Positions 29,404 to 48,721 of a stretch of DNA of 64,000 bases are shown here, piece by piece. The position numbers and the translations under genes were made by a program. Location: the NCBI RefSeq assembly GCF_009903625.1, contig NZ_CP047569.1, positions 2,644,501-2,708,500 on the forward strand. Direction: 5' to 3'. The notes beneath the pieces were generated by a model that saw only the letters and a list, made by a program, of their open reading frames with translations, was not told the origin of the DNA and ran no database searches. Numbering within the stretch: the stretch's first letter is position 1; every line of letters starts with the position of its first letter. Source of the DNA: Microbulbifer sp. ALW1 (GTDB lineage Bacteria > Pseudomonadota > Gammaproteobacteria > Pseudomonadales > Cellvibrionaceae).

Positions 29404-30042
29404 GTGGGAGAAAAAGAACAAGAAATTAATCTATGGGAACAGTGGGGGCAGGGTGGAAACAGTGCTTTTCGAGATGCACTTATTTCGCACTACCTGCCCT
29501 GGGGGGTATCCGTTGCGTTTTCCTTGATGAAAGCCTTTCCTCCAAATTTAGTTCCCCATGATGATATTCGGCAGATCACTGCAGTCGCTCTGCTGGAATC
29601 TATAGAGCGTTTTAGCCCCGACAAGGGTGTGCCATTCGAAGCTTTTGCGCGAAAGCGGGTGCGCGGTGCACTGTTGGACGAGATAACTGCTGCAAATCGT
29701 CAGGCATTAAATGCTTCGAATGTTGATCAGTATTCCCGTCCGTTTACCGCGCTGGTAGATCAGCTCGATGTAATGGTTATGGAGATTTTGCTGAACAGCA
29801 TGAGCGCGGAAGCAGTGCCCATTTACCCAGATTTTACTTGTAGAAGTGAAATGCATGCGGTGTTAACTGATGTGATTACGCGTTTGAGTGGGCGCGAGCA
29901 AGAAGTAATTAAGCTCTCGTACTTTCACGATCATAGTAACCGGGAAGTGGCGCGAGCCTTGTGCTTATCAGAAGGGCGGGTCAGTCAAGTTAAAAAAATG
30001 GCGCTCGACAAACTGAAGCAACAACTAATAGCAGAGATTTAA
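29404..30042 (+). CDS. fliA: Sigma-28 (FliA)-like RNA polymerase sigma factor
   Basis: GTG start; 212 residues against about 240 for FliA. Region 1.2/2 is clear ('NLWEQW', 'LISHYLPW', then 'DDIRQITAVALLESIERF', 'FEAFARKRVRGALLDEI', residues ~9-96), matching the FliA pattern of 'GLLEAI.RYDP' and 'IRIRGAMLDELR'. Region 4 is clear at residues ~158-208 ('LSGREQEVIKLSYF', 'EGRVSQVKKMALDKL'). Region 3 is short and divergent. It is the first gene of the operon, which in flagellar systems is not the usual place for fliA. No FlgM anti-sigma factor is seen. It probably drives this operon or its effectors rather than flagellin; that is inference. Confidence 0.85.
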   Translation: MGEKEQEINLWEQWGQGGNSAFRDALISHYLPWGVSVAFSLMKAFPPNLVPHDDIRQITAVALLESIERFSPDKGVPFEAFARKRVRGALLDEITAANRQALNASNVDQYSRPFTALVDQLDVMVMEILLNSMSAEAVPIYPDFTCRSEMHAVLTDVITRLSGREQEVIKLSYFHDHSNREVARALCLSEGRVSQVKKMALDKLKQQLIAEI

Positions 30043-30071
30043 CCGGTAATCTGCCGAGACGAGACAATTTA

Positions 30072-31214
30072 GTGATTAATATTGAAAAGCAAGAAGCCCT
30101 CCAGAGACTTCGAAAATTCTGGGAGCAGGACCGTGAAAACCCTCTGCTCACGCAGGATTTGCTATCGAAATATTTCGAGACTGGCGCGCTGGACCAAGGG
30201 CGAGAATTTATCGATGCTCTGCCCGAAAGTGTCTTGGGCTTCCCTTCGGTTTCTCATTCCGCGGGCATGTTATGTCTTGCGGTGAGTGACTATCGTCAAG
30301 CCGAGTTTTGCTTTCGCTGGGCGGATGCGAAAGCACCAGGGCAGCTGGCAATTCAATACAACCTGGCTTACACAATGTTCCAGCAGCACCAGTATGCTGA
30401 GGCAGAGACCATTCTCCAGAGCATTGCTGAACCAACAGCGGAAGTACTCGTGCTCAAAGCCCGGGCAGATCACCACTTGGGTAAGTTTGACCACGCGATT
30501 GATGCACTCGATGCTGCCATTGCACTAGATGGCGATTTACAAGCAAGTGGACTCTTGGCTCTTGTTTACAATGATTGTGGTAGTCGCGAAAAGGCTATAG
30601 AACTTGCAGAAATGGTTCTCGAGCAGGAACCCCACCAATTTGAAGCATTATTGGCTATGGCCGATGCATATACTGCTCTGCAGTCCTACGCAGAGGCATC
30701 ACGGTGGTGCGATATGGGGTTGACCGAATACCCTAGTGTTGGACGTTTCTGGACGGTTAAAGGGCAATTGCAACTGGTGGATTTCGATTTCAATGAGGCC
30801 AGAGCAAGCTTTACAAAAGCCGTAGAGCTAATGCCTGAACACATTGGCACCTGGCACTTATTGGGTTGGAGTGAGGTTCTGCGGGATGATTTGGGCGCGG
30901 CGTTACACGCGTTTGAGCGGGCTCTGGAGCTGAACCGGAACTTTGCCGAAAGCCATGGTGGCCTGGCAGTAGTCAATGCGCTTCAGGGTAATTGGGATAC
31001 TGCGCAACAGGCCAGCAAACGCGCATTGGGACTCGATCACAGCAATTTGTCTGGTCGCTACGCCGAGGCCCTCTGTTTAGAGCATCGGGGACAGGCAGGA
31101 GCGGCGGAGCAACTTCGCCAGAAACTGTTTGCAACACCCACGGGGCAAAAGGTGGAAAACAAGCTTCCGGAAATGGTTCAGAAATATCTCGCCAACCGCG
31201 GTGAACAATTGTAA
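30072..31214 (+). CDS. TPR-repeat protein, first copy
   Basis: GTG start at 30072, 380 residues, made of about nine to ten tetratricopeptide-type helical pairs ('YRQAEFCFRWADAKAP', 'FDHAIDALDAAIALD', 'FNEARASFTKAVELMP', 'LGAALHAFERALELN'). No signal peptide or membrane segment, so it is cytoplasmic. Its stop overlaps the fliQ start by one base. TPR proteins serve as chaperones or assembly factors in type III systems, but nothing in this sequence fixes a partner. A second, shorter TPR gene closes the operon at 48149-48721. Confidence 0.75.
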   Translation: MINIEKQEALQRLRKFWEQDRENPLLTQDLLSKYFETGALDQGREFIDALPESVLGFPSVSHSAGMLCLAVSDYRQAEFCFRWADAKAPGQLAIQYNLAYTMFQQHQYAEAETILQSIAEPTAEVLVLKARADHHLGKFDHAIDALDAAIALDGDLQASGLLALVYNDCGSREKAIELAEMVLEQEPHQFEALLAMADAYTALQSYAEASRWCDMGLTEYPSVGRFWTVKGQLQLVDFDFNEARASFTKAVELMPEHIGTWHLLGWSEVLRDDLGAALHAFERALELNRNFAESHGGLAVVNALQGNWDTAQQASKRALGLDHSNLSGRYAEALCLEHRGQAGAAEQLRQKLFATPTGQKVENKLPEMVQKYLANRGEQL

Positions 31215-31474
31215 TGGAACCGGATACGGCCATGCGCCTGATGGCATCGATGCTGGAAGTTGCCGCATGGATGAGCGCTCCGGTGCTGGCTACCGCCCTG
31301 ATCATCGGTCTTTTGGTTTCGGTATTTCAGGTGGTGACACAAATTCAGGAAATGTCACTCACTTTCGTGCCCAAAATTATTGGTGCGGTGATCGTGCTGA
31401 TTCTGATGGGTAGCTGGATACTCGCAACATGGATGGAGTTTGCTGAGAAGTCGATTGGGATGGTGGCCGGTTAA
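31214..31474 (+). CDS. fliQ: Flagellar-type export gate protein FliQ
   Basis: 86 residues (family ~89) with two membrane helices. The family signature 'LIIGLLVSVFQVVTQIQEMSLTF' followed by 'PKIIGA' is almost canonical. FliQ wraps the FliP5-FliR1 core of the inner-membrane export gate. ATG overlaps the stop of the preceding TPR gene (TAATG). Position directly before fliR is the normal order. Confidence 0.95.
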   Translation: MEPDTAMRLMASMLEVAAWMSAPVLATALIIGLLVSVFQVVTQIQEMSLTFVPKIIGAVIVLILMGSWILATWMEFAEKSIGMVAG

Positions 31475-31476
31475 AC

Positions 31477-32244
31477 ATGCTGCTGGAATCTCTTTCCCGA
31501 CAATCTTCCCTTGTCGTGCTTGCCATGGTACGCCTGGCGCCGTTGTTATTTGTCGCGTTATCAAATCCAATGTCGCGGGTGCCGGCCAGTGTGCGCCTTG
31601 TGCTAACGGCCACCGCGGCCATTGGCTGTGTACAATTGTCGCCGCAACTTCAGGTGCCGCCAAATCTGGGCTTTGCAGAGTTTCTGCGTGCGGCTTCTAT
31701 TGAGGCATTTATCGGCAGCGCGCTGGCCGCTGGATTTTTTGTCGGGTCTGCGGCATTACTGACACTGACGCGCATGGTGGATATGCAAATGGGCTTTGGC
31801 GCCGCTGCAGTACTGGATCCAGCAACCAATAGTTCGGAATCAATTATCGGCACGCTTTATCTCTGGGTGCTATTTGTGCTGACATTTGAACTCGGTTTTC
31901 ATTACGACATTCTTGGAATACTGCTGTTGTCATTCAAGTTGCTGCCGATGTTTGGTAGTGGTGTTGAATTTGACCTGGGTGCATTTACGGCTTATCTCAC
32001 ACAGCAATTTACCCTGGCGCTGACAATTTTCCTGCCTGTTTCCATGGCGCTGTTGATTTTCGATTTCTGTATTGGCTATCTTGCCAAAAGTATGCCGCAA
32101 ATGAATGTGTATTTTGTCGGCTTACCACTCAAAATTTTTATTGGCCTTGTGACTTTGGCGATCAGTGTGCGACTGACTGGATCCGGACTTGAACGAATGC
32201 TGGACAGCATCCGCGAATTTATGCTGATGGCGGTGGGGCGGTAG
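31477..32244 (+). CDS. fliR: Flagellar-type export gate protein FliR
   Basis: 255 residues (family ~260) with about six membrane helices. Family features include the N-terminal 'MVRLAPLLFVAL', 'GFGAAAVLDPATN' (FliR usually 'GASFAxxxDPxxG/N') and 'MPQMNVYFVGLPLKI', a hallmark of FliR/SctT. Forms the FliPQR entrance channel. Two bases separate it from fliQ; flhB starts on the next base after its stop. Confidence 0.95.
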   Translation: MLLESLSRQSSLVVLAMVRLAPLLFVALSNPMSRVPASVRLVLTATAAIGCVQLSPQLQVPPNLGFAEFLRAASIEAFIGSALAAGFFVGSAALLTLTRMVDMQMGFGAAAVLDPATNSSESIIGTLYLWVLFVLTFELGFHYDILGILLLSFKLLPMFGSGVEFDLGAFTAYLTQQFTLALTIFLPVSMALLIFDFCIGYLAKSMPQMNVYFVGLPLKIFIGLVTLAISVRLTGSGLERMLDSIREFMLMAVGR

Positions 32245-33297
32245 ATGGCCGAGCAGGATCAGGATAAGAGCGAAGAGGCCTCACCTTTTAAGTTGCGTGA
32301 GGCGCGCAAGAAAGGTCAGGTATCAAAAAGTCTGGAGCTGAATGCATTTGCCGTGGTTTCAGTTTGCCTGTTGTCTATTTTGCTGTTTAAAGATCGGCTT
32401 GCGAGTGGTACGGAGGCAATGTTTCGAACTATCGTTTCACGTGGCTTTTCGGAGCCAATGGAGCCCGGTGCCCCGGTAAGCTGGATGTCATACGTTTTGT
32501 TCAGTTTGTTGAACGTTTTCGGACCGGTGCTGGTGACAATTGTGCTGGCCGCAGTCTTGGTGAATCTGGCGCAGGTGAAGTTCGTGGTTTCCAGTTTCCC
32601 GCTAAAGCCGGACTTTCAGCGTCTGAATCCTGCTGCGGGCTTTAAAAAGCTGTTTTCACGTAGAGTTTTGTACGAACTCATCAAGGCTGCGTTGAAGATC
32701 GGTTTCTTGTTCGTATTTATTCTGCTGATGGGAATGCCACTGGTTAATTGGCTGGTGAGTGGCGTAACTCTCCAGTTGTCGAGTGTCGGCGGCTGGGCCA
32801 CGGATATCGTTGTGCAGGTCGTACTAGTGTTTATTCTGATGCTGTTGCCCATTGTGATTGTGGACAAGCTCTACACCCGAAGGGACTTTCTGCGGCAAAT
32901 GCGTATGAGCCGTAAGGAAGTAAAGGACGAGCATAAGCGGCTGGATGGGAATCCGGAACAAAAGAAGAAGCGCAGGCAGTCGCAGAAAGAACTGCTGGAA
33001 AAGTCCAAAGCATTGGCCAATGTGAAGTCTGCCGATTTGGTGGTGGTAAACCCTACCCATTATGCGGTTGCCTTGCGTTTTGAGCGCCACGCAATGATTG
33101 CGCCAAAGGTCGTTAGCTTGGGGGCTGGAGCACTTGCGTTGGAGATCAAGCGTCGGGCAAGAATATACGGGAAGCCAATTGTTGCACGGCCAAAGCTGGC
33201 ACGTCAGTTGTATAGATCAAGTCGGTTAGATCAGCCGGTTTCACCAGATTCGTATCAAGATGTCGCGGAAGTGTATCAGTGGTTTTACCAACGCTAA
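32245..33297 (+). CDS. flhB: Export-gate switch protein FlhB with intact NPTH cleavage site
   Basis: 350 residues, full length. Starts with the family motif 'DKSEEASPFKLREARKKGQV'; four membrane helices up to ~residue 215; then the cytoplasmic domain. The autocleavage site Asn269-Pro-Thr-His lies at nt 33049-33060, followed by 'YAVALRF'. Cleavage between Asn and Pro switches export from rod/hook to late substrates in flagella. Its preservation implies that two substrate classes are still exported, even though no filament genes are present here. 'KEVKDEHKRLDGNPEQ' is also canonical. Confidence 0.96.
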   Translation: MAEQDQDKSEEASPFKLREARKKGQVSKSLELNAFAVVSVCLLSILLFKDRLASGTEAMFRTIVSRGFSEPMEPGAPVSWMSYVLFSLLNVFGPVLVTIVLAAVLVNLAQVKFVVSSFPLKPDFQRLNPAAGFKKLFSRRVLYELIKAALKIGFLFVFILLMGMPLVNWLVSGVTLQLSSVGGWATDIVVQVVLVFILMLLPIVIVDKLYTRRDFLRQMRMSRKEVKDEHKRLDGNPEQKKKRRQSQKELLEKSKALANVKSADLVVVNPTHYAVALRFERHAMIAPKVVSLGAGALALEIKRRARIYGKPIVARPKLARQLYRSSRLDQPVSPDSYQDVAEVYQWFYQR

Positions 33298-33317
33298 AAT
33301 TATCCCGTCAGCTAAAC

Positions 33318-35357
33318 ATGCTGAAACAACTTTACCAGGCAAGCTATCAGGATCTTGCTCTGGTCGTTGCAATGATTGGCATTTTGATGGCGCTGTTTGT
33401 GCCTGTGCCAGGGATCTTGCTGGATTTTCTTATTATCCTGAACTTCAGTTTCGCGCTGCTGATGCTGCTTATTACATTCTATAGCGATAAGCCGATTAAG
33501 TTCTCAACATTCCCGTCGCTACTGCTAATGGCAACTCTATTTCGACTTGCGCTTAATATTGCAGCCACACGCCTGATTCTTGCCGACGCCGAGGCGGGCA
33601 AGGTTATTGGTGCGATTGGGGAGTACGTAGTGGGTGGCAACTATGTAATCGGCCTCGTCGTTTTCCTTATTTTAGTGGTAGTGCAATACGTTGTTGTGAC
33701 TAATGGTGCACAGCGCGTAGCGGAAGTGGCCGCACGTTTTACCTTGGATAGCATGCCCGGCAAGCAGATGAGTATCGATGCTGATCTCAATATGGGACTC
33801 ATCGACGAAAAAACCGCACGCCAACGCCGGGGTGATATCGAGCGCGAAGCAAATTTTTACGGTGCAATGGATGGCTCGACCAAGTTTGTGAAAGGCGATG
33901 CCATTGCGGGCATTATCATTATTTTGATCGATATTATCGGCGGCCTTTCCATTGGCCTAGCGCAACATGGTATGTCCTGGGGGGAGGCACTTGAGACGTT
34001 TACGCTCCTCACGGTTGGCGACGGGATTGTTACTCAAATCCCCTCTCTGATCATCGCCGTCGCTACCGGTATTTTGATTACACGCGCCGCGACCGACGCG
34101 CGCCTGGGTGAAGAAGTGGTGGCCCAAATCACTGCAAACCCCAAAATATTATCGTTGATTACCATTGTGCTATTACTGGTGACACTTTTGCCTGGCCTCC
34201 CTGTGCTACCACCGCTGGTGCTGGCTTTTGTTTTTGGTGCGGCCACTTGGTATTCACTTTCGAGGGAAGACATACAGCCTGCCCAGGAAGAGCAAAACGA
34301 TTCCGCGGAAGAGGTGGAGCCCGAAAGCTTCGCAGATTTGCTTCGGATGAAGCCAATTGAATTTCAGTATGGAACTGAGATTGCCAAGTACGTAGAAACA
34401 CAGCGTGATCACCTTGGTGTACTGTTTGAAAATCTGCGTAGACAAATAGCACAGGACCTCGGTTTACTCGTACCTTTAGTTAGTTATGTCCCGTCCAAAA
34501 AAATGGCCGGTAATACTTATAGCATCGCTTTTCATGGCTCTCTGGTGGGTAATGGAACTCTCTACGATGGCCAAAAGATGGCCATATCTCCAGGAGGGAG
34601 CCTGGACACGCTGAATGGTGTGGATGCGCGGGAACCGGCGTACAAGTTACCAGCCAAATGGATAGATGCAAAACAATACGATCTGGCAAAGCGTGAGGGG
34701 TGCACCCTAGTTAACCCCGATACGCTTCTGATTACCCACCTACAGCAAGCAATTAACATGAAAGGGGAAGAACTCCTTACGCGCCAGACCGTGGAAATGA
34801 TGATCGAACAGGTTCGTGGAGACTTGTCTGGGCTATTGGATGAATTGATTCCCAACAAGCTGCAAATCTCCGATCTGCAATCCATTCTTAAAGAGCTTCT
34901 AAGGGAAGGAGTCTCGATTCGCAATCTCTCCAGAATTCTAGAGGCCATTGCCGAGTCCGTTACCAGCAGTGCCAACCGGTATGACATCGTCGAAGTAGTG
35001 CGTGCGCGTTTAGGAGCACAAATTATTGAGAAAATTGCTTCCGGTCGCGAGACTCTTGAAGTGATATCAATCGCCCCTGACCTTGAAAACACGTTGGTGG
35101 CTTCAATTCGCAAGGATGATCGGGGAGGTGTTTTGGTACCAGACCCATCAATTCTCGATCGATTGATGTCAAGTATCGTGGAGGTAAGCGATGCAGTGAT
35201 TTCTCGAGGGCAAGAGCCCGTGGTCGTGTGCAGTGTCCGACTGCGCCGCCCGCTATTTGAATTCTGCCGCCGTATGTTGCCGGCACTGAAAGTCCTGTCT
35301 ACCGCAGAAATTGTCAGTGATATCAAAATAAACTCTAACCAAATGATCCGGGTGTAG
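33318..35357 (+). CDS. flhA: Export-gate protein FlhA
   Basis: About 679 residues from ATG 33318; an in-frame ATG at 33279 would overlap flhB by 19 bases and is less likely. The N-terminal half has about eight membrane helices with the FHIPEP-family sequences 'TLFRLALNIAATRLIL' and 'DSMPGKQMSIDADLNMGLID', continuing 'RRGDIEREANFYGAMDG'. The C-terminal half is the soluble nonamer-ring domain that docks substrate-chaperone complexes. Length and motifs are normal. The export engine is thus conserved while the motor parts are reduced. Confidence 0.96.
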   Translation: MLKQLYQASYQDLALVVAMIGILMALFVPVPGILLDFLIILNFSFALLMLLITFYSDKPIKFSTFPSLLLMATLFRLALNIAATRLILADAEAGKVIGAIGEYVVGGNYVIGLVVFLILVVVQYVVVTNGAQRVAEVAARFTLDSMPGKQMSIDADLNMGLIDEKTARQRRGDIEREANFYGAMDGSTKFVKGDAIAGIIIILIDIIGGLSIGLAQHGMSWGEALETFTLLTVGDGIVTQIPSLIIAVATGILITRAATDARLGEEVVAQITANPKILSLITIVLLLVTLLPGLPVLPPLVLAFVFGAATWYSLSREDIQPAQEEQNDSAEEVEPESFADLLRMKPIEFQYGTEIAKYVETQRDHLGVLFENLRRQIAQDLGLLVPLVSYVPSKKMAGNTYSIAFHGSLVGNGTLYDGQKMAISPGGSLDTLNGVDAREPAYKLPAKWIDAKQYDLAKREGCTLVNPDTLLITHLQQAINMKGEELLTRQTVEMMIEQVRGDLSGLLDELIPNKLQISDLQSILKELLREGVSIRNLSRILEAIAESVTSSANRYDIVEVVRARLGAQIIEKIASGRETLEVISIAPDLENTLVASIRKDDRGGVLVPDPSILDRLMSSIVEVSDAVISRGQEPVVVCSVRLRRPLFEFCRRMLPALKVLSTAEIVSDIKINSNQMIRV

Positions 35358-39944: not shown

Positions 39945-40234
39945 GTATAGAGAGTATTCGACCACTACATACTGTAATGAATGAAATTATCGGCGGTGAT
40001 CTACAAACAAATGCGCTGCCTGATACGTCAAATTTCACAGAGTTTCTTGACAATATTTCTCAGGAAGCCGGCCGAGTTGAGGGGCTCGTCGAAGATTTTG
40101 TTCGGGGTAGTGATGTCGAGCTACATACGGTCATGATTGAGATGCAGAACATGAAGCTCAAGCTACAGGCAGTCACTGAGCTAAGAAATAAGGTGGTTGA
40201 AGCCTACCAAGAAGTAATGAGAATGCAGGTGTAA
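39941..40234 (+). CDS. fliE: Rod/MS-ring adaptor FliE
   Basis: 97 residues (family ~105). The C-terminal helical region 'DVELHTVMIEMQNMKLKLQAVTELRNKVVEAYQEVMRMQV' carries the family pattern (D..HxVMIA.Q.A..SLQ...VRNK...AYQEIM.M.V). Links the FliF ring to the FlgB rod. ATGA overlap with flgC. Confidence 0.93.
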   Translation: MSIESIRPLHTVMNEIIGGDLQTNALPDTSNFTEFLDNISQEAGRVEGLVEDFVRGSDVELHTVMIEMQNMKLKLQAVTELRNKVVEAYQEVMRMQV

Positions 40235-41799: not shown

Positions 41800-42456
41800 A
41801 TGGCAACACTCAAGCTACCAGTAAAGCAATCTCAAGAAACACAAAAAATTGTGGACGTGGAAACACCCCATCTGGATTCGGAACCAGCAGCTATTCCGGA
41901 TGGATTGGTAACTAGAGATGAGTTAAATGCGGCTGAAAAAAAAGCCTATGAACTTGGCCTGGTAGACGGGAACGAGGCTGCCAGCCGTAAGGTTTCCGCA
42001 GAGCGTGAGGAGGTTGAAGTTCTTAGCGATGCGTTAAAGAGGCAAATCGCTACTCTGGATAAATCGACAAGCGCAATTTCAGGTCTTATTGACGAATTCA
42101 ATCAAGGTCTTCTTGATGTAAACGGTAGTATCAAAGAAATTGCGAAGCAATTTGAGAATGATTTTGCACGTTACTTTCTATTTGATGAAGATCTCCTTGC
42201 GCAGCAAATCGCAAGGAAAGTCGAGAGTTTCTCTAGAGAGATGTCTTTGGTCGACTACCGGATCATTGCTGATCCCACTTTGAAAGAGTCGTTTAAGATG
42301 GACGAGTCTCTTGCTCATCACTTGCCAAAAATCGAAGTCGAGTCAGGTGCATGTAAGTTGGTCCTGATTGACAGCGAAGGTGAACTCTACTGGGATCCTG
42401 GGATGATTCGTGACTTGCTGATAAAACCAGCCGCTCCCGATTCAGACAGTAAGTAA
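41800..42456 (+). CDS. fliH: Export ATPase regulator FliH-like
   Basis: 218 residues. The 'RDELNAAEKKAYELGLVDGNEAA' region is the typical FliH start helix ('AYxxGxxxG'), followed by a long coiled-coil stretch (~65-125) and a C-terminal alpha/beta domain ('DYRIIADPTL', 'KIEVESGACKLVLIDSEGELYW'). FliH dimers hold the FliI ATPase at the export gate and C ring. Directly before fliI; the stop overlaps the fliI start. Confidence 0.85.
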   Translation: MATLKLPVKQSQETQKIVDVETPHLDSEPAAIPDGLVTRDELNAAEKKAYELGLVDGNEAASRKVSAEREEVEVLSDALKRQIATLDKSTSAISGLIDEFNQGLLDVNGSIKEIAKQFENDFARYFLFDEDLLAQQIARKVESFSREMSLVDYRIIADPTLKESFKMDESLAHHLPKIEVESGACKLVLIDSEGELYWDPGMIRDLLIKPAAPDSDSK

Positions 42457-43745
42457 TGTTACAGCGTCAGATTTTGAGTTTTGACTCGTGTACTCCGCCA
42501 ATTCTGTATCGGAAAGGGTACGTTGTTGGTGTGGATAGGAGCTCGATAATTATTGAAGGAATAGTCGGGCATATCGGTCAGGTTTGCTACGTGCGTGATT
42601 GTCTAGGGGCGTATATAGGTGCTGAGATTATAAGAAGTACGATTGATTCAACGATCCTTATGCCCCTAGGTCAGATTGCTGGTGTACTGCCAGGCTGCGT
42701 CGTCCTTAAGCCAGTGCAGCAGACAATCCGGTCATTACGTGAATCAATCGACGAATCGTATTTTCTGACAGCTCTGGGCGACCCTGTTGTGGGTTACCAG
42801 CGCAATAAGCCTGTTTTTGTTAGTTTGGAAGATGGTACGTACAGTCAGTTTAATGCTGAAGCTTTACCTGCAAGCGAGAAAGCTACTACAGGAATATCAG
42901 TTTTTGATGACTTTCTTCCTTTAGCTTATGGGCAGAAGACGGCAATCTTTTCCAAAGCGGGGCTCGGTAAAAGCTCACTCCTAAAAAAGCTAATAAACTC
43001 GGATGCATTTGATCATGTGGTATTTGCGTTAGTTGGAGAACGATCAAGAGAACTATTGTCTTTTGTTCGTAACTTAGACCCACGTCAATCAGCCAAGACT
43101 ACTGTGGTTGGTGCTGCGGCTGCCGAACCAAGTATCCGAAAGGCGAGAGTTGTGGATACAGCCTTAGATGTTGCTCGAGAGTTACTTGCCAGCGGCAAAA
43201 AGATACTGCTTGTCGTTGATTCAATTACAAGGTATGCGGGAGCTCTAAGAGAGATAGGTGTCTCATCTGGTGAAATTCCTGGCAGGCAGGGAAACCCATT
43301 ATCTGTTTTTAGTGGAGTTTCTGCCCTGTTGGAAAGTGCCTCAGTTTATGACAATGAATCGAGTTTAACGATCGTTGGTAGTGTGCTCCTGGAATCGGAC
43401 TTTGAGGATCTGATTGCTGATTTTGTAAAGTCCGTTACCGATGGTCATGTGTTTCTATCAAGCAAGCTTGCGAATAAAGGAATTTTTCCAGCAATTGACT
43501 TGCTGACAAGTCAGTCGAGACTCTCTGAAGTAGTCTTCTCCGATGCAGAGAAGATAGCTGCTCAGTCTATTCGGAGTGCAGTTGCTGAGTTTGATGAGTT
43601 GGAAGATTACATCCGGTTCTCAGGCTATCGCTCTGGCGAGCAACAGTCGGTTGATAACGCTGTTGCGAATAGGAAATTCATAAACTCTTGGCTCCTCGGA
43701 GATGAAAAGTTTTCCGACCTCTTGGAGACTATTTCAAGTGCTTAG
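42456..43745 (+). CDS. fliI: Export ATPase FliI
   Basis: 429 residues (family ~440). N-terminal beta barrel, then the ATPase core with a P loop at residues 166-173 (S-K-A-G-L-G-K-S; the first position is Ser where FliI usually has Ala/Gly), the catalytic-Glu motif 'LVGERSREL', Walker B ending in Asp255 within 'LLVVDSITRYAGALREIG', and 'SGEIPGRQGNPLSVF'. The key Lys172 is present, so activity is likely. Energises unfolding and export of substrates. TAATG overlap with fliH. Confidence 0.95.
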   Translation: MLQRQILSFDSCTPPILYRKGYVVGVDRSSIIIEGIVGHIGQVCYVRDCLGAYIGAEIIRSTIDSTILMPLGQIAGVLPGCVVLKPVQQTIRSLRESIDESYFLTALGDPVVGYQRNKPVFVSLEDGTYSQFNAEALPASEKATTGISVFDDFLPLAYGQKTAIFSKAGLGKSSLLKKLINSDAFDHVVFALVGERSRELLSFVRNLDPRQSAKTTVVGAAAAEPSIRKARVVDTALDVARELLASGKKILLVVDSITRYAGALREIGVSSGEIPGRQGNPLSVFSGVSALLESASVYDNESSLTIVGSVLLESDFEDLIADFVKSVTDGHVFLSSKLANKGIFPAIDLLTSQSRLSEVVFSDAEKIAAQSIRSAVAEFDELEDYIRFSGYRSGEQQSVDNAVANRKFINSWLLGDEKFSDLLETISSA

Positions 43746-44163
43746 TTTTTATAAGTTGGCCAAATACCAGCGGTATAAAGCGCTTCGTAAAATCGTTGGG
43801 GAAGGACGCGTGCTTCGGGAGAGTAGCAGTAGGGTTGAGTCGCGGAAAAGGCATGTACAAGCAGAGTTGGAGAACCTTGATCGTACATTGAATAATACTG
43901 TTTCGTCAGGGATACCGCTTTATTTGCTGGATGAATACTTAAATAAAGTCCCAGTATACGCGGAGAACTCGGTGCGCTTGGAGACTGAATCGAAGCGTCT
44001 ACTCTCCGAAGTCGAGCGAATCGAGTCGATGTCAGCTGCGGTTTCCTCACAAATTGATTTATTCGGTGAAATGGAGCGAAAACAAAGGCTTTTGGAAAAA
44101 TTTTCCCTCGATCAATACCAGGATGACTTGATTCGGGACGAGTTGCGGAATAGGTCCAGTTAA
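43738..44163 (+). CDS. fliJ: FliJ-like export chaperone
   Basis: 141 residues from GTG 43738, which overlaps the fliI stop by eight bases; an in-frame ATG at 43702 would overlap far more. It is almost entirely charged coiled-coil helix ('LRESSSRVESRKRHVQAELENLDRTLNNT', 'VRLETESKRLLSEVERIESM'), the hallmark of FliJ/SctO stalk proteins that insert in the FliI ring. Sequence identity in this family is always low, so the call rests on shape and position after fliI. Confidence 0.75.
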   Translation: MLSFYKLAKYQRYKALRKIVGEGRVLRESSSRVESRKRHVQAELENLDRTLNNTVSSGIPLYLLDEYLNKVPVYAENSVRLETESKRLLSEVERIESMSAAVSSQIDLFGEMERKQRLLEKFSLDQYQDDLIRDELRNRSS

Positions 44164-44165
44164 AA

Positions 44166-44912
44166 ATGGGTATTCACTCACTGTCAGATTTCACATTCCT
44201 GCCATATGGCGATGTTGAATTTCGTGAAGATCGTGCATCCAGTAATAGAGTGGATGGTCAGTCATTCGATCAGTTTCTGCTATCTGACGCTCAGAGTCAT
44301 ACTTCTTCAGAGAAAGACAATTCAATTTCGGAAATTGAATCTGCCGATAGTCTCGACACTCGCCAGCACGTAATTTTATTCTCAGGCAGTATTTATGAAG
44401 AGGTTTACTCCAGCGTTCAGAGCTGGCCTCGTCTATTGTCGTTCGCTACAGGAGTTGATGGCGTTTCTCTGAAATTTGGTAACTCAAGGGAAATTGGGGT
44501 TATGTCAATAACTGTAACAGAGTCAACGTCTTATGAGAAAGTCAATAGCCATGATGTGGTGAGGCTTCGCGACTTTCTGAATCCCTTTTGGGGTAAAGGC
44601 AATTCTGCGTCAGGGAATATAGTTGGCAGTAGTGCTTCTACGATTGAAAGTATAAATGCGCGTATTTCTCATGCTCCGCAAGCGACAAACCATAGCGTCA
44701 CAACATGGTCAAACAGCTCATTACCTAATAGATCTATTCTGTTTTTGCTGATGAATGATATGGAAAACGAGGATAGTTGTTATTCAATATTTGTTCGGAA
44801 TTACGGCGAGACACGTGAAAATAGTAGCTGGTTATTTGAAATGATTCCATCGAGCATGCTTAGAAACGCAAAAGTGCATTTTAACGGTGAGGCCTTAGAT
44901 TATGTCCGTTGA
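44166..44912 (+). CDS. Protein at the FliK (hook-length ruler) position
   Basis: 248 residues, rich in Ser/Asn/Asp with a disordered-looking N-terminal half and no signal peptide. It lies between fliJ and flgD, where fliK normally lies, and a FlhB with an intact NPTH site needs such a switch partner. I see no clear FliK C-terminal motif (e.g. 'LxLxPxxLGxVxV'), although 'VHFNGEALDYV' at the end loosely recalls it. If it is the ruler, it is short compared with FliK (~400), which would set a short hook or needle. Function by position only. Confidence 0.45.
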   Translation: MGIHSLSDFTFLPYGDVEFREDRASSNRVDGQSFDQFLLSDAQSHTSSEKDNSISEIESADSLDTRQHVILFSGSIYEEVYSSVQSWPRLLSFATGVDGVSLKFGNSREIGVMSITVTESTSYEKVNSHDVVRLRDFLNPFWGKGNSASGNIVGSSASTIESINARISHAPQATNHSVTTWSNSSLPNRSILFLLMNDMENEDSCYSIFVRNYGETRENSSWLFEMIPSSMLRNAKVHFNGEALDYVR

Positions 44913-45312
44913 CGCAATTGGGAGTATCTTGGGGGGTGTCGAGACAGAATCGTCAAATTCCATCTCTCAAGAAGAGTTTCTTCGATTGTTTCTGGCGCAG
45001 CTTCAGTTTCAAGATCCCATGGAGCCGTTAGACAACAGCGAATTTTTGGCGCAATTGGCGCAATTCTCCAGTATTGAGCAGAACCGACAGAATGGTTTGC
45101 AGTTGGAAAATATTGCGAGACTAAATTCCAGCTATCAGGCCTCTGAATTACTAGGCCGGTCGGTGGAAGTCTCCTCTGAAAGCGGAAGTCTATTCGGATC
45201 CATCTCAGCTGTGTCGTTCGATGGAACTGGAACAACCTTTACCGTCAATTCCACGGATGGCAATGTCGTTTCGGGGCTTCGTCTTTCTCAAATACGTGTT
45301 ATACGACAATAA
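44902..45312 (+). CDS. flgD: Hook-cap scaffold FlgD, short form
   Basis: 136 residues against ~220. The N-terminal signature is almost canonical: 'EEFLRLFLAQLQFQDPMEPLDNSEFLAQLAQFSSIEQ' region (family 'FLxLLxxQLxxQDPxxPxDNxxFxxQLAQFSxxE'), then 'ASELLGRSVEV'. The Tudor/fibronectin part that normally follows is missing, apart from a short beta region. Sufficient in principle to cap hook assembly. Overlaps the upstream gene by 11 bases. Confidence 0.92.
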   Translation: MSVDAIGSILGGVETESSNSISQEEFLRLFLAQLQFQDPMEPLDNSEFLAQLAQFSSIEQNRQNGLQLENIARLNSSYQASELLGRSVEVSSESGSLFGSISAVSFDGTGTTFTVNSTDGNVVSGLRLSQIRVIRQ

Positions 45313-45320: not shown

Positions 45321-46496
45321 ATGCTCCAGTCATTTTTTAATGGTTTGTCCGGAATGGTCGTGTTTTCGCAAGGTCTTAACACGATCAGTAATAATGTTGC
45401 AAATATGAATACCCCGGGCTTTAAAGCCGTAAACAATTTCTATCGCGCGCTTGGAGAGGATGGGCATGGAATTGGCGCGAAACTTTCCGGTGAGTATATG
45501 GATGAGTCGGCAGGGACAATCCGTGATACCGGCAGAGCCACTGATCTAGCGGTTATTGGTGAAGGCTATTTCATTGTTGAGAAAGATGGTCTCTATCAGT
45601 ACACGCGGAATGGCCAGTTCGTGTTTGATGACGATGGATTCCTAAAGGATACCGTGTCTGATGGTTATGTAATGGGAGCTGGCCCGAGCGGTAATTTGTA
45701 TCGCATCGACATTTCTACAATGAAAACCTTGCCACCGGAAGCTACTACTGCACTCAGTTTTTCTGGGAACCTTTCGACAGGTGATGATGAGCACGAAATC
45801 CCGGCGATTTCTGTCTTTAATAGCTTGGGTGAGGAGGTGACGTTTGGGCTTCGTTTTGTCAATAGTACGGCCACGAACCCTGGTGAGTGGTCTGTAGTCG
45901 TTGAGAGTGATTCTGGAATTCCTTTGTGGACAGGTCAGCTGAATTTTGGGTTAGATGGGTCGGTAAGTCCAGGTAGCGAATCATTGTCGATTACCATTCC
46001 TTCCGCTGAAAATGGCACTGCCGGTGTTGCACTAGATTTAACCCTGACGTTCGGCGTCCCCGGGGATTTCTCGGCGAGCACATCATTTGCAGGTGGAACA
46101 GTTTCAACACTTGGATCTGAGATTGTGGATGGTCGTGGTTCTGAGGGACTAGTGGCGGCAAGTTTTAACGACAAGGGGGCCCTTAATCTTCTTTATTCCA
46201 ATGGAGATACGGAAGAGCCCTATACCATTGGTTTGGCATATTTCGACAACCCTCAAAATTTACGGCATATGGGAGATGGATTCTATGTGGCGAATACCTT
46301 GCAAGGTGTCAGTTATGGTCAACCGGATACTGGTATCTTCGGTTCGATTCAAGGAAATAGCATCGAATCATCAAATGTCGATTTGGTGCGCGAGTTTGCA
46401 GAAATGATTATTGCGCAGCGGGGCTATCAGGCGGCGTCTCACGTTATGGACGTAGCTAACACCATGATTGAAACACTGTATCAGTCTAAAGGTTGA
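45321..46496 (+). CDS. flgE: Hook protein FlgE
   Basis: 391 residues (family ~400). N-terminal 'NGLSGMVVFSQGLNTISNNVANMNTPGFKA' and C-terminal 'IESSNVDLVREFAEMIIAQRGYQAASHVM' motifs, with the central hook domain present ('ISVFNSLGEEVTFGLRF'). It is the most distal structural protein in the operon: no FlgK, FlgL, FliD or flagellin follows. It would form the visible extracellular tube of the machine. Confidence 0.94.
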   Translation: MLQSFFNGLSGMVVFSQGLNTISNNVANMNTPGFKAVNNFYRALGEDGHGIGAKLSGEYMDESAGTIRDTGRATDLAVIGEGYFIVEKDGLYQYTRNGQFVFDDDGFLKDTVSDGYVMGAGPSGNLYRIDISTMKTLPPEATTALSFSGNLSTGDDEHEIPAISVFNSLGEEVTFGLRFVNSTATNPGEWSVVVESDSGIPLWTGQLNFGLDGSVSPGSESLSITIPSAENGTAGVALDLTLTFGVPGDFSASTSFAGGTVSTLGSEIVDGRGSEGLVAASFNDKGALNLLYSNGDTEEPYTIGLAYFDNPQNLRHMGDGFYVANTLQGVSYGQPDTGIFGSIQGNSIESSNVDLVREFAEMIIAQRGYQAASHVMDVANTMIETLYQSKG

Positions 46497-46502: not shown

Positions 46503-47195
46503 ATGAGAGTTTTTAACGTGACTGGAGATTGCTCCGAGGTTTCAAAAGTATTCCCGAAGGTGGATGAGGTCTCTCGCTGGCTAAGCGAGTGGCTGGATTT
46601 GGATGCCAGATTTACTGCGGAATTTTTGGTGATCACACCTGCTGATTTGGGCGGTTGGTCTAGTTGGTATGCTGATGATGGGATAGTCCTAGTCTCTAAT
46701 TCAATCCGAGAATTTGTAGATTTAGAATTGCGGAAGTTATCTGAAACCTGCGTTGGCTATGATTCGGAGTCAGTATATTCGATTGCCGAGAATATGCTGT
46801 TAAATTGCTTTGGCGTGGAATCAATTGAACGCATAGATGTGCTTCGGGAAGCTATTACGTCGTTTGACGTTTTAGTGTTTTCTTTCAATCTACCTAATGG
46901 TCAGATAGGTTCTATTGCATTTTCTGCGGCATGTGCATTCGGGCCGTTGAAGCTTGGCAAATTGGACCCCAGTCCTATTGAATGTTTCGCGCTGAAAAAT
47001 AAAGTTGACTTAGAGGTGAAAAAGAAAGTTGATATCAATTTGCAATCGGTTAAATCAATTCGTCCAGGAGATGAAATTACCCTTGGGGCCTTGGAAAATT
47101 TCAGCTGGAGCTTAACAGTTCAATCTGAAGATGTTGGTCTGTCAGCATACCTTGGCAGGAATGGCGATAAGCGCGCAGTTGTAGTTGAGAATTGA
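46503..47195 (+). CDS. fliM: Reduced C-ring protein, FliM/SctQ-like with one SPOA domain
   Basis: 230 residues against ~330 for FliM. Only the C-terminal ~70 residues are recognisable as a SPOA (surface presentation of antigens) domain: 'LEVKKKVDINLQSVKSIRPGDEITLG' and 'LSAYLGRNGDKRAVVVE'. The N-terminal CheY-P-binding motif ('LSQxEIDxLL') and the central FliG-binding GGXG-type domain of FliM are not seen. This is the layout of injectisome SctQ, which forms sorting-platform pods rather than a rotor. Followed within one base by fliN. Confidence 0.7.
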   Translation: MRVFNVTGDCSEVSKVFPKVDEVSRWLSEWLDLDARFTAEFLVITPADLGGWSSWYADDGIVLVSNSIREFVDLELRKLSETCVGYDSESVYSIAENMLLNCFGVESIERIDVLREAITSFDVLVFSFNLPNGQIGSIAFSAACAFGPLKLGKLDPSPIECFALKNKVDLEVKKKVDINLQSVKSIRPGDEITLGALENFSWSLTVQSEDVGLSAYLGRNGDKRAVVVEN

Positions 47196-47196
47196 T

Positions 47197-47493
47197 ATGA
47201 GTGAAGTTGTGTTAGAAGACATTTCCAACCTCGATGAGAGTGTGAAGGGAAAGGCAATATCTGGAAATTTTGACAAGATCCTAAACAATGTCCAAGTGGA
47301 GTTGGAGGTTGTAGTTGGCTCAGTAAAGGTTGAGTTAGGGAAGCTTGTCAATGGCAAAGTAGGTAATGTGATTACACTGGATCAGGCTATCGGAGACCCT
47401 GTTGTATTGAAGTGCGATGGTCTAGAAGTTGGGCGTGGTATTTTGGTGGCGAGCGGCGCTAATCTTGCAGTTAAAGTCATTGAAAGTGACTGA
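47197..47493 (+). CDS. fliN: C-ring/sorting protein FliN
   Basis: 98 residues from ATG 47197. A SPOA domain fills the C-terminal 70 residues ('NNVQVELEVVVGSVKVELGKLVNGKVGNVITLD', then 'VVLKCDGLEVGRGILVASGANLAVKVIE'), aligning well with FliN ('VxVxxELGxxxxxxxDLLxLxxGxVxxLD', 'xxxxGEVVVVxxxxGVRI'). In flagella it anchors FliH-FliI at the base. Together with the SctQ-like protein it would make a small substrate-loading platform. Confidence 0.9.
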   Translation: MSEVVLEDISNLDESVKGKAISGNFDKILNNVQVELEVVVGSVKVELGKLVNGKVGNVITLDQAIGDPVVLKCDGLEVGRGILVASGANLAVKVIESD

Positions 47494-47511
47494 TTTCGGG
47501 GTGATTTAGTA

Positions 47512-48138
47512 GTGGCTGAGCAATTTAGTTGGTTTACGATCTTGACATCGTTGACTTTTTTGCCATTTTTCCTTGTCGCAGTTACACCTTTTTTACGATT
47601 CATTATTGTGTTTTCGGCAATCCGTTATGCGCTTGGACTTCAGCAGAGCCCACCGAATATCGTCTTGATTGCTTTAGCAATATTCACAACTGTTGCTGTA
47701 ATGGGTGATATACCGAACCAGATATATAGTAGCGTTCTTCTTCCATTGTCTGAGCAAGATATCACGATGAAAGCGGCCGCCGACGAAATTTCAAATGTGG
47801 CAAAAGGCTGGATGATACCTCGGGTATCCGGTGATGATTTGGAAGCAGTATATGCGATGTCTCAATCTGCGGTACCGGCTTCTGCCGAAGAAGTATCTAT
47901 CACTAAGCTGATGCCTGCGTACATGTTAAGTGAACTGGCTTATGGTTTTAAAGCAGCTTTTTTTGTGATGGTACCGTTTTTGCTGGTTGACTTGGTTGTT
48001 TCAGGTGTGCTTATGTCGCTGGGTATGATCATGCTCCCACCAATTACAGTTTCAATGCCAATTAAGCTAATGCTATTTGTGCTTCTTGACGGCTGGTCTC
48101 TCATTACATTAAACCTGGCTCAGAGCACCTCAATCTAG
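47512..48138 (+). CDS. fliP: Export gate protein FliP without a cleavable signal peptide
   Basis: 208 residues from GTG 47512 against ~245. It opens directly with the first gate helix ('LTSLTFLPFFLVAVTPFLRFIIVFSAIRYALG') and the hallmark 'LQQSPPNIVLIALAIF', then 'MPAYMLSELAYGFKAAFFVMVPFLLVDLVVSGVLMSLGM' and 'PITVSMPIKLMLFVL'. The N-terminal signal sequence and the longer periplasmic loop of flagellar FliP are missing, as in SctR of injectisomes. FliO, the usual FliP chaperone, is absent. Placed last, away from fliQR, an unusual order. Confidence 0.94.
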   Translation: MAEQFSWFTILTSLTFLPFFLVAVTPFLRFIIVFSAIRYALGLQQSPPNIVLIALAIFTTVAVMGDIPNQIYSSVLLPLSEQDITMKAAADEISNVAKGWMIPRVSGDDLEAVYAMSQSAVPASAEEVSITKLMPAYMLSELAYGFKAAFFVMVPFLLVDLVVSGVLMSLGMIMLPPITVSMPIKLMLFVLLDGWSLITLNLAQSTSI

Positions 48139-48148
48139 GATTTTTATA

Positions 48149-48721
48149 ATGAATAATCAAAAATTTGATTCAGAAGAGCTCCTGCATCTTGCCATTCATG
48201 CATCTCTGAATGGCCGTATCGACGATTCAATCATCAAGTTGAAGCAACTTCTCGAAGTTGATCCCGATCATTCCAATGCACACTTTTTGCTGGCAGCTGA
48301 TTATGCGGAGATTAAGCTTTTTGATAAGTCAATTTTTCACTATCGCGAAGTTCTAAACTTGCGCCCGGAGATGTCGGTTGCTCGGATTCAGTTTGCTCTA
48401 TTGCTGACCGCGCTAGACAATCTTGATGAGGCTGCACAGGTTTTGGAGTATTTCTCTGGACTGGAAGGTGATTCATATGAAAAGTACGTTCATGAAGGTC
48501 TGATTGCGTTACACCATGAACGAATGTTAGAGGCTAAGAGTGCACTACTGAAAGCTATCGAGATAAATGTAGATAATGCCGTACTAAATGATGATCTGAA
48601 AAAAATTATCGATGGGATCGAAGCAAATTTTGCTAGTGACGATTCCAATCAGATTGGTTCGGATCAAGGTCTCGTGAAAGGTAAGTCATTTTTACTATCT
48701 GCCTATGGAGAGAAAGACTAG
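48149..48721 (+). CDS. TPR-repeat protein, second copy, end of export operon
   Basis: 190 residues of tetratricopeptide-type helices ('LIHLAIHASLNGRIDDSIIKLKQLLEVDPDH'-like first repeat, 'KSIFHYREVLNLRPEM', 'LDEAAQVLEYFSGLEG', 'MLEAKSALLKAIEINV') and no signal peptide. Ten bases after fliP, so it is co-transcribed. A cytoplasmic TPR protein at this place could be a substrate chaperone (compare the SycD/LcrH class of translocator chaperones, which are all-TPR); this is inference. Confidence 0.7.
   Translation: MNNQKFDSEELLHLAIHASLNGRIDDSIIKLKQLLEVDPDHSNAHFLLAADYAEIKLFDKSIFHYREVLNLRPEMSVARIQFALLLTALDNLDEAAQVLEYFSGLEGDSYEKYVHEGLIALHHERMLEAKSALLKAIEINVDNAVLNDDLKKIIDGIEANFASDDSNQIGSDQGLVKGKSFLLSAYGEKD

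What the first reader, a model, noticed from the sequence alone, without database searches (positions are those of the whole stretch)
29404..48721. A self-contained flagellum-derived export machine without filament or motor
Seen: 26 co-directional genes with overlaps or very short gaps encode a sigma-28-like factor, the export gate, ATPase complex, MS ring, rod, P/L rings, hook, hook cap and reduced C ring, flanked by TPR proteins. Not seen: flagellin, FlgK/L, FliD/S, MotA/B, FliL, FliO, FlgJ, FlgM/N, FlhF/G, chemotaxis genes. Established: Buchnera keeps filamentless hook-basal bodies thought to act in transport, and injectisomes derive from flagella. Inference: this operon is an independent, partly converted flagellum now used for protein export across both membranes, or as a surface tube, and differs from injectisomes by keeping FlgH/FlgI rings, rod and hook instead of a secretin and needle.
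Basis: partly seen in the sequence, partly recalled or inferred. Interest (0 to 1): 0.95.

Follow-up and report, generated by a model that had tools for sequence, protein, structure and literature searches.

The report
Motorless flagellum paired with giant toxins
A Microbulbifer genome with no detectable flagellin, MotB or FliG torque-domain gene carries a 26-gene cluster for a flagellar base and hook, one of a separate lineage seen in Alpha-, Beta- and Gammaproteobacteria; because this lineage almost always occurs in genomes that also encode giant RHS toxin-like proteins, it likely serves to export them, which would make it a second, independent conversion of the flagellum into a weapon.

Summary
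In detail: window 29404-48721 has 26 co-directional genes for a flagellar export gate, ATPase, MS ring, rod, P/L rings, hook and a cut-down C ring. The 4.68 Mb single-contig genome has no flagellin, FliG torque-domain or MotB match and one FlhA. It is not a remnant of one genome: I read 29 loci with this compact gene order, a few split, inverted or cut (Microbulbifer, Dyella, Lysobacter-like, Legionella, Grimontia, Pseudoalteromonas, Noviherbaspirillum, Sphingomonas and others). Outside Microbulbifer, an ordinary flagellum is usually encoded elsewhere in the genome. All 29 form one branch (support 100) apart from the ordinary flagella; FliG is cut to its N-terminal part. The new result: giant RHS proteins, mostly 3,500-8,600 residues, with a conserved leader, a LysM-membrane module and a variable tip, go with it (two in the window locus). 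Their module is in 8 of 8 Microbulbifer genomes with the system and 0 of 40 without; outside the genus in 23 of 25 with and 1 of 54 without. I conclude that this is an independently derived, motorless flagellar secretion machine whose likely cargo is giant RHS toxins. Export is untested. The closest experimental relative is the flagellar secretion apparatus of Lysobacter enzymogenes.

The parts
29404..30042 (+). FliA-like sigma factor (212 aa)
   Evidence: Pfam Sigma70_r2/r4, best NCBIfam match FliA_WhiG E 8.8e-30, below cut-off
30072..31214 (+). TPR protein 1 (380 aa)
   Evidence: Pfam TPR families; in 19 of 25 contexts, window included
31214..31474 (+). FliQ
   Evidence: Pfam PF01313 E 7.7e-25
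31477..32244 (+). FliR
   Evidence: Pfam PF01311 E 7.4e-40
32245..33297 (+). FlhB, with the NPTH motif of the autocleaving switch
   Evidence: Pfam PF01312 E 1.9e-97; NPTH in the translation; meaning of NPTH recalled
33279..35357 (+). FlhA
   Evidence: Pfam PF00771 E 1.8e-226; only FlhA match in the genome
35359..36051 (+). FlgF-like rod protein
   Evidence: NCBIfam flgF E 1.4e-17, below cut-off
36054..36791 (+). FlgG rod protein
   Evidence: Pfam Flg_bbr_C, Flg_bb_rod
36788..37564 (+). FlgA P-ring chaperone
   Evidence: Pfam ChapFlgA E 4.4e-7
37503..38075 (+). FlgH L ring
   Evidence: Pfam FlgH E 2.7e-35
38045..39202 (+). FlgI P ring
   Evidence: Pfam FlgI E 1.4e-110
39202..39555 (+). FlgB-like rod protein
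   Evidence: no Pfam match; position and family profile
39552..39944 (+). FlgC rod protein
   Evidence: NCBIfam FlgC E 2.2e-12, below cut-off
39941..40234 (+). FliE
   Evidence: Pfam FliE E 1.4e-19
40239..41498 (+). FliF MS ring, short (419 aa)
   Evidence: Pfam YscJ_FliF E 9.8e-37; ordinary FliF 542-586 aa in 10 ordinary flagellar contexts
41495..41791 (+). FliG', 98 aa, N-terminal part only, no torque domain
   Evidence: start inferred from the sibling genome; family profile hits ordinary FliG residues 2-176; fold search, the top 8 hits are FliG or FliG-containing entries, best E 0.033
41800..42456 (+). FliH-like
   Evidence: position and family profile, which also hits ordinary FliH
42456..43745 (+). 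FliI ATPase
   Evidence: Pfam ATP-synt_ab, T3SS_ATPase_C
43702..44163 (+). FliJ-like
   Evidence: position and within-family similarity only
44166..44912 (+). FliK-like
   Evidence: position and within-family similarity only
44902..45312 (+). FlgD hook cap
   Evidence: Pfam FlgD E 5e-17
45321..46496 (+). FlgE hook
   Evidence: Pfam Flg_bbr_C and others; NCBIfam FlgEFG E 4.6e-65
46503..47195 (+). FliM', 230 aa, C-terminal SPOA-type domain kept, rest diverged
   Evidence: family profile hits ordinary FliM and solved FliM/FliN; model of the protein poor, pLDDT 43
47185..47493 (+). FliN
   Evidence: Pfam FliMN_C E 1.9e-16
47512..48138 (+). FliP
   Evidence: Pfam FliP E 2.4e-57
48149..48721 (+). 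TPR protein 2 (190 aa)
   Evidence: Pfam TPR; related ORFs in 15 of 25 contexts, window included
9360..26849 (+). giant RHS protein B (5829 aa): leader, DUF6531, RHS repeats, Ig-like repeats, LysM, membrane segment, variable tip
   Evidence: Pfam RHS_repeat E 4.8e-134, DUF6531, He_PIG, LysM; leader and module conserved
24486..24821 (+). LysM-membrane module of giant B
   Evidence: alignment A4
6..6245 (+). C-terminal part of giant RHS protein A (6828 aa in all, genome 2630259-2650745; runs off the window's left edge)
3891..4226 (+). LysM-membrane module of giant A
   Evidence: alignment A4
6246..6965 (+). 239-aa ORF directly after giant A; candidate immunity protein (inference from position)
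   Evidence: no Pfam match
26885..27250 (+). 121-aa ORF directly after giant B with a lipoprotein-like start; candidate immunity protein (inference)
   Evidence: no Pfam match

Best explanation
This is a motorless, filamentless flagellar base and hook of a lineage separate from ordinary flagella, and it likely works as a dedicated type III exporter of giant RHS toxin-like proteins encoded beside it. Shown by sequence: the parts list, the absence of flagellin, FliG torque-domain and MotB matches from the genome, the common branch of the lineage, and the near-complete co-occurrence with the giants. Inferred steps: FliH/I/J would feed substrates to the FlhAB-FliPQR gate; rod and hook would be built first through the P and L rings; FliK and FlhB would then switch the gate to a late substrate that is not flagellin but an unfolded giant carrying the conserved N-terminal leader. 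Outside the cell, its YD repeats would fold, its LysM domain would hold cell wall, and its membrane segment and variable tip would act on a neighbouring cell, with the small gene after each giant giving immunity.
For: Parts. Of the 8 Microbulbifer genomes with the system, flagellin in 0, FliG_C in 0, MotB_plug in 1 (G023, over the cut-off but weaker than in most flagellated genomes). One branch for all 29 compact loci in the five-gene tree, SH-aLRT 100; for FlhA alone, 99, and 100 with 19 further ordinary FlhA from Firmicutes and other phyla added (41 compact rows against 37, none misplaced). Co-occurrence of the LysM-membrane module: 8 of 8 versus 0 of 40 in the genus; 23 of 25 versus 1 of 54 outside; Fisher p 2.7e-9 and 1.4e-16, uncorrected for relatedness. 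Five of the 8 genus genomes and 20 of the 23 matching outside genomes had no row in the profile. The system forms three separate groups within Microbulbifer, each with the giants. Linkage: in 19 of 31 genomes a module lies within 40 kb of flhA. Conserved leader in giants of 18 genomes. Of 22 database proteins found by the leader alone, 21 carry the module. The T6SS sheath gene is missing in 13 of 31 giant-carrying genomes. Literature: in non-flagellated L. enzymogenes OH11, flhB and fliI are needed to secrete a test flagellin (PMC7277350, passages and one section).
Against: No secretion was shown for any giant. Two of 25 outside genomes with the system lack the module: G326 (82% complete) and the Legionella MAG G101 (2.6 Mb). 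Weak module matches (E 1e-9 to 8e-15) occur in 5 of the 365 class-sample genomes without the system's FlhA; G280 carries a diverged giant, with no gate or basal-body gene in the 80 kb read, and G386 of the same genus has a similar match. G092 has a LysM-only match. In 12 of 31 genomes no module lies within 40 kb on flhA's contig. Distances of leader and FlhA correlate weakly over 18 genomes (rho 0.187, 192 of 5000 permutations as high) and not once close relatives are removed (rho 0.02, 2268 of 5000). Five of 22 leader proteins also carry RTX-type repeats (PF00353), a usual mark of type I secretion (last point recalled). A 6,000-residue substrate is far longer than known flagellar substrates (recalled). 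In L. enzymogenes the reported native phenotype is twitching, and the genes were said not to form an operon. The window genome itself also has a T6SS sheath gene.
Confidence: 0.72

Rival explanations
1. The machine secretes or displays something else (hook tube for adhesion, enzymes, pilus control as reported for Lysobacter), and the giants are only co-inherited on the same mobile neighbourhood and leave the cell by another route.
For: Linkage is loose in part: 12 of 31 giant-carrying genomes have no module within 40 kb on flhA's contig. Twitching phenotype, and a PilA secretion defect in the fliI mutant, in L. enzymogenes OH11 (PMC7277350, passages). RTX repeats in 5 of 22 leader proteins. 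No co-phylogeny of leader and FlhA after removing near relatives.
Against: Co-occurrence holds even where the two were found on different contigs (among others G099, G100, G103, G107, G370, G405, G699, G720; drafts, so true distance unknown) and in three separate groups within one genus. T6SS cannot be the common route: 13 of 31 lack its sheath gene. Other exporters were not searched.
Confidence: 0.2
2. A decaying flagellum that lost motor and filament, like the reduced basal bodies of Buchnera, with no new function.
For: FliG, FliM and FliF are shortened; FliO is missing in the window and G029 clusters.
Against: The gene order is kept, with the exceptions named in the report, in 29 loci of distant taxa; 13 of 14 non-Microbulbifer genomes also have flagellin, FliG_C and MotB_plug matches, so an ordinary flagellum is encoded there too. 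The lineage is not nested among the ordinary flagella sampled.
Confidence: 0.03
3. An ordinary or lateral flagellum whose filament and motor genes lie elsewhere in the genome.
For: Hook, rod, rings and a FliA-like sigma factor are kept. One MotB_plug match over the cut-off in G023. MotA was not searched.
Against: No flagellin, FliG_C or MotB_plug match in the complete 4.68 Mb genome; 0 of 8, 0 of 8 and 1 of 8 in the genus.
Confidence: 0.03
4. A member of the non-flagellar type III (injectisome) family.
For: Short FliM' that recalls SctQ, TPR proteins, loss of motor.
Against: It keeps FlgC/F/G, FliE, FlgH/I, FlgD/E, and lies apart from the injectisome-type row G037.
Confidence: 0.02

Closest known systems
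Flagellar type III secretion apparatus of non-flagellated Lysobacter enzymogenes OH11 (PMC7277350: passages and one section; PMC9927559: passages)
   Same: Two FlhA records named L. enzymogenes (P0095, P0106) fall in this lineage; a genome with FlhA 83% identical to P0095 has the compact cluster and four modules. The genes reported lost in Lysobacter (fliC, fliD, flgK, flgL, flgB, fliE, fliG, fliM, motA, motB) are filament and motor genes plus genes that are diverged in the compact cluster.
   Different: Described there as flagellar genes kept after loss of the flagellum, acting in twitching and export; no RHS partner, separate lineage or common gene order appears in the passages read. The companion paper (PMC7688988) was not held. 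OH11 itself was not examined here.
Needle-less T3SS* of Myxococcus xanthus (PMC10433427, passages)
   Same: A type III machine without needle or secretin, with LcrH-type chaperones, used in contact killing.
   Different: It lacks outer-membrane parts and is classed with the non-flagellar T3SS; the present one keeps rod, P/L rings and hook. Its effectors are unknown.
Non-flagellar T3SS (PMC3459982, passages)
   Same: Gate, ATPase and inner ring are homologous; independent loss of motility.
   Different: That family is described as one exaptation; the present lineage would be another, keeping FlgC, FliE, FlgH/I and hook.
Large Rhs/WapA-type polymorphic toxins (PMC10433427, PMC3482391, passages)
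   Same: YD repeats, great length, variable C-terminal tips, small gene after the toxin.
   Different: Large Rhs proteins are described as bearing signal peptides and short ones as frequent T6SS cargo; these are large, start with a conserved leader that does not look like a clear signal peptide, and carry LysM plus a membrane segment before the tip.
Reduced basal bodies of Buchnera (cited in PMC3459982)
   Same: Filamentless basal body proposed for secretion.
   Different: A reduced copy of the host lineage's own flagellum (recalled), not a separate spreading system.

Membership tests
Bacterial flagellum (motile) | flagellin gene | tested here: not met
   PF00669 0 matches in G000, 0 of 8 Microbulbifer with the system
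Bacterial flagellum (motile) | FliG torque domain | tested here: not met
   PF01706 0 of 8; FliG' aligns with the N-terminal part only
Bacterial flagellum (motile) | stator (MotB plug) | tested here: not met
   PF13677 0 in G000; 1 of 8 (G023, E 1.9e-9) in the genus; MotA not tested
Bacterial flagellum (motile) | rod, P/L rings, hook, export gate | tested here: met
Non-flagellar T3SS (injectisome) | no flagellar rod/hook genes | tested here: not met
   FlgC, FlgG, FliE, FlgD, FlgE present
Non-flagellar T3SS (injectisome) | gate genes branch with injectisomes | tested here: inconclusive
   only one clear injectisome-type row (G037) in the trees; it lies apart
Non-flagellar T3SS (injectisome) | secretin in the cluster | tested here: not met
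   no secretin among the 26 cluster proteins scanned in Pfam; genome not searched
Compact lineage with L. enzymogenes FT3SS | FlhA in the same branch | tested here: met
   P0095 in the 62-row branch, support 99, and P0095 and P0106 in the 41-row branch, support 100
Compact lineage with L. enzymogenes FT3SS | same gene order | tested here: met
   X760 (FlhA 83% to P0095) among 29 contexts, with named exceptions; not read in L. enzymogenes itself
Polymorphic RHS toxin (giants) | RHS/YD repeats | tested here: met
   PF05593 E 4.8e-134
Polymorphic RHS toxin (giants) | variable C-terminal tip | tested here: met
   26 distinct tips, 3 similar pairs
Polymorphic RHS toxin (giants) | known toxin domain in the tip | tested here: inconclusive
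   no Pfam match at E 0.05 in either window tip; among relatives P0126 lists PF14021, recalled as a necrotizing-toxin domain; HNH-like look of some tips is by eye
Polymorphic RHS toxin (giants) | toxic to a neighbour, immunity gene protects | not testable with these tools
   needs an experiment

The most novel reading that the evidence does not exclude
A second, independent conversion of the flagellum into a weapon: a horizontally spreading class of secretion machine that keeps the flagellar rod, rings and hook, has shed the motor and filament, and threads single RHS toxins of mostly 3,500-8,600 residues through the flagellar gate by a conserved N-terminal leader.
Probability: 0.62. Interest if true: 0.96.

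Novelty: new variant of a known kind. Interest (0 to 1): 0.9.

Why it matters
The account in PMC3459982 has the non-flagellar T3SS as the single time a flagellum was exapted in this way. This would be another, in bacteria that often also encode a normal flagellum, so the two could be compared within one cell. It would give very large RHS proteins of Gram-negative bacteria an exporter, and it gives the L. enzymogenes work a native cargo to test. It also suggests that some gene sets annotated as flagellar (Microbulbifer, Dyella, Legionella bononiensis and others here) are not for motility.

Tried and rejected
Structure of FliM': the model was poor (pLDDT 43) and was not searched further. PDB sequence search with the FliG' profile gave no FliG and only weak matches to unrelated proteins. 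Leader versus FlhA distances: weak in all 18 genomes (rho 0.187, 192 of 5000 permutations as high), none after removing near relatives; I do not claim co-phylogeny. The idea that a small ORF upstream of giant A (L259 3605-3964) is a copy of the small conserved protein u122: only 5.8 bits, not claimed. Toxin domains in the window tips: none in Pfam at 0.05. PADLOC: none for 5 proteins. Rfam: no match in the window. Window TPR protein 2 against the PDB: only TPR-containing and designed proteins, no type III chaperone. Ordinary lateral flagellum, Buchnera-type decay and injectisome were weighed and set aside for the reasons under the rivals. In ten paper searches I saw no listed title or abstract start that links a flagellar-type apparatus to giant RHS proteins or describes this lineage; lists were capped and the library holds open-licence papers only.

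Full report
The window lies in a 4,682,287-base single-contig genome. The species of the window itself is not named.

All 26 ORFs from 29404 to 48721 point the same way. Pfam and NCBIfam identify the gate (FliP, FliQ, FliR, FlhB, FlhA), ATPase FliI, MS ring FliF, rod (FlgC, FlgF, FlgG, FliE), FlgA, P and L rings (FlgI, FlgH), hook cap FlgD, hook FlgE, FliN and a FliA-like sigma factor. Many NCBIfam matches are below the curated cut-offs for ordinary flagellar proteins. FlgB, FliH, FliJ, FliK, FliG' and FliM' were placed by position and by profiles made here.

Filament and motor genes are missing from the genome, not only from the cluster. Flagellin (PF00669), FliG_C (PF01706) and MotB_plug (PF13677) give no match in G000, and FlhA occurs once. 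Over the 8 Microbulbifer genomes with this type of FlhA the counts are 0 of 8, 0 of 8 and 1 of 8 (MotB_plug in G023, E 1.9e-9, over the cut-off). Of 14 further genomes with the system outside the genus, 13 have flagellin, FliG_C and MotB_plug; the exception, G103, is a MAG with none. Those 13 also have a second FlhA match of ordinary type: 36-39% identical in 12 of them, and 47% and 30% over two pieces in G053.

The same cluster recurs. I read 25 contexts and four more from Xanthomonadales. In them the order FliQ-FliR-FlhB-FlhA-FlgF-FlgG-FlgA-FlgH-FlgI-FlgB-FlgC-FliE-FliF-FliG'-FliH-FliI-...-FlgD-FlgE-FliM'-FliN-FliO-FliP is kept, with these exceptions: Noviherbaspirillum (G100) has the block split, with FlgF-FliF not in the stretch read; Sphingomonas (G106) has half of it inverted; three loci (G104, G105, G370) insert two genes after FlhA; several contexts end early (G103, G326, G370, G023, G405); FliG', FliH, FliM', FlgA or TPR proteins were not recognised by profile in some loci although an ORF of fitting size often stands there; and FliO is absent in the window and G029. 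The sigma gene is last in most and first in the window lineage. Named hosts come from record titles: Dyella acidiphila and D. flagellata, Grimontia celer, Legionella bononiensis and a Legionella MAG, Pseudoalteromonas byunsanensis, Rheinheimera faecalis, Noviherbaspirillum suwonense, Pseudomethylobacillus aquaticus, Exilibacterium tricleocarpae, a Sphingomonas. Their classes are recalled.

Identity of FlhA to the window's separates two groups in the proteobacterial genomes searched: 44-51% over nearly the full length for the compact lineage (91% in G029), at most 41% over nearly the full length for the others, with N-terminal pieces of the latter up to 50%. Some Firmicutes FlhA reach 44% in their best segment, so identity alone does not decide. 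Trees do. A 78-row FlhA tree puts 62 rows in one branch (SH-aLRT 99), including proteins named Stenotrophomonas, Lysobacter enzymogenes, Pseudomonas japonica, Pseudoalteromonas and Pleionea. A second FlhA tree with 19 further rows from Firmicutes, Nitrospira, Bdellovibrionales and others keeps 41 compact rows on one side of a branch with support 100 and all 37 other rows on the other side. A five-gene tree (FlhA, FlhB, FliP, FliR, FliI; 42 rows, six ordinary rows with only two genes dropped) puts all 29 compact loci on one side with support 100. Within Microbulbifer the system forms three separate groups (window and G029; G042, G009, G023; G028, G011, G019), so it probably entered the genus more than once; the tool warns that the join of the window group with Grimontia may be a long-branch effect. 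It is rare: 3 of 368 other genomes in an even class sample (E below 1e-160) and 9 of 299 in the order of Dyella, the centre genome included.

The C ring is cut down. FliG' ORFs are 98-208 aa in the 20 loci (raw ORF lengths; the window's raw ORF is 139, 98 from the inferred start), 158-219 in three of the four Xanthomonadales loci and 570 in X690, whose start I did not examine. Open frames around the 16 FliG_C matches of ordinary flagella are 333-406 aa. The FliG' profile aligns with ordinary FliG residues 2-176 (E 4e-4). The predicted fold of the window protein (pLDDT 76) has FliG or FliG-containing entries as its eight best PDB matches, though the best E-value is only 0.033. FliM' is 230-268 aa (one raw ORF of 462 in G100) and its profile matches ordinary FliM from about position 138 of 253 on. 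A rotor without the torque domain and a genome without a stator plug cannot turn in the known way (established knowledge of flagellar motors).

What does it export? Upstream of the cluster the window holds two RHS giants, of 6828 aa (running off the left edge) and 5829 aa. They share the first 130 residues exactly and diverge farther on. Giant neighbours of clusters in G029, G042, Grimontia, Pseudomethylobacillus and Sphingomonas share a module of 112 model positions: a LysM domain, a proline-rich stretch, a cysteine-glycine patch in most and a membrane segment. A profile of 7 such rows was searched in all 48 genomes of the genus held: 8 match, exactly the 8 with the compact FlhA, and 0 of the 40 others do. 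In 79 genomes outside the genus, 23 of 25 with the system and 1 of 54 without it match. The two misses are G326 (82% complete) and the MAG G101; the one extra, G092, matches the LysM part only. Positives were found through FlhA and negatives were picked by me from earlier lists, so this is not a random draw. In the even class sample, 8 of 369 match: G000, G370 and G405 at E below 1e-36, all with the system, and five without it at E 1e-9 to 8e-15, of which G280 carries a diverged giant and no gate or basal-body gene in the 80 kb read. share G326, G370, G405 and some negatives.

Linkage and architecture agree. In 19 of 31 giant-carrying genomes a module lies within 40 kb of flhA; in G102 and G067 a leader-bearing ORF runs off the contig end beside the cluster. 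Open frames around the modules range from short pieces (many at contig ends) to 8,582 aa; those of the four closed Microbulbifer genomes and G029 are 5,834-6,990 aa except one of 2,294 in G042. The N-terminus is conserved among giants of 18 genomes (M-x-AVI-x-G-x-x-LGL-x-[DN]-SS, by eye). A database search with residues 1-130 alone found 22 proteins of 4,205-6,870 aa, a range set partly by the tool's length limits; 21 of 22 carry the module, 566-889 residues before the end. Tips vary: 26 distinct tips show 3 similar pairs. Hydropathy of 10 leaders is mostly below that of FlgI signal peptides but overlaps for two, and no signal-peptide predictor was available. Thirteen of 31 giant-carrying genomes lack the T6SS sheath gene, so T6SS is not the common exporter; the window genome itself has one.

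Literature. In non-flagellated L. enzymogenes OH11, a test flagellin is secreted and this needs flhB and fliI; flhA, flhB, fliI and fliR mutants lose twitching, fliP and fliQ mutants do not (PMC7277350). A later paper says the apparatus is also needed for secretion of antifungal toxins, citing the earlier work (PMC9927559, passages); a further paper cited there was not held. My evidence that OH11's apparatus is of this lineage is two FlhA records named L. enzymogenes in the branch and the cluster in a genome with FlhA 83% identical; OH11 itself was not read, and PMC7277350 says its genes do not form an operon. The Myxococcus T3SS* is the nearest functional parallel (PMC10433427, passages).

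Verdict. The feature is real and is a distinct lineage of flagellum-derived, motorless machines. The likely cargo is the giant RHS proteins; this rests on co-occurrence, linkage and a conserved leader, and no export has been shown.

Noticed in passing
L034:5962-6330 and related ORFs in 11 loci (u122/u118): A small conserved protein family (about 102-137 aa) usually next to TPR protein 2; no Pfam match for the one scanned. Could be a chaperone or regulator of the giants; not found convincingly in the window lineage.
   Followed up: partly
window about 29330-29403: About 70 bases before the sigma gene are almost identical between the window and G029, while the sequence farther upstream differs more; possible promoter or leader region (by eye).
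   Followed up: no
G280:C1:3566-16309 and G386:C25: Small genomes (1.5-1.6 Mb) with a diverged RHS giant (leader and module weak) but no compact FlhA at E 1e-150; a different exporter may serve them.
   Followed up: partly
P0127, P0128, P0135, P0139, P0141: Five of 22 leader-bearing giants also carry RTX-type repeats (PF00353, PF06594).
   Followed up: no
G105, G104, G370, after flhA: Two inserted genes, a 412-447 aa protein and a 93-98 aa FlhB-like C-terminal fragment.
   Followed up: no
window 37503-38075: FlgH starts with a signal-like segment that has no cysteine, so it may lack the lipoprotein anchor usual for L-ring proteins (sequence; usual anchor recalled).
   Followed up: no
window 27698-28603, - strand: Phospholipase A2-like protein (PF06951, below cut-off) with a signal-like start, between the giant and the cluster.
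   Followed up: no
window 49641-53087: Di-haem cytochrome c peroxidase fused to a Laminin_G_3 domain after the cluster; no link to the system seen.
   Followed up: no
G000:C1:347913-348371: The window genome also has a T6SS sheath gene (PF05591) far from the cluster.
   Followed up: no
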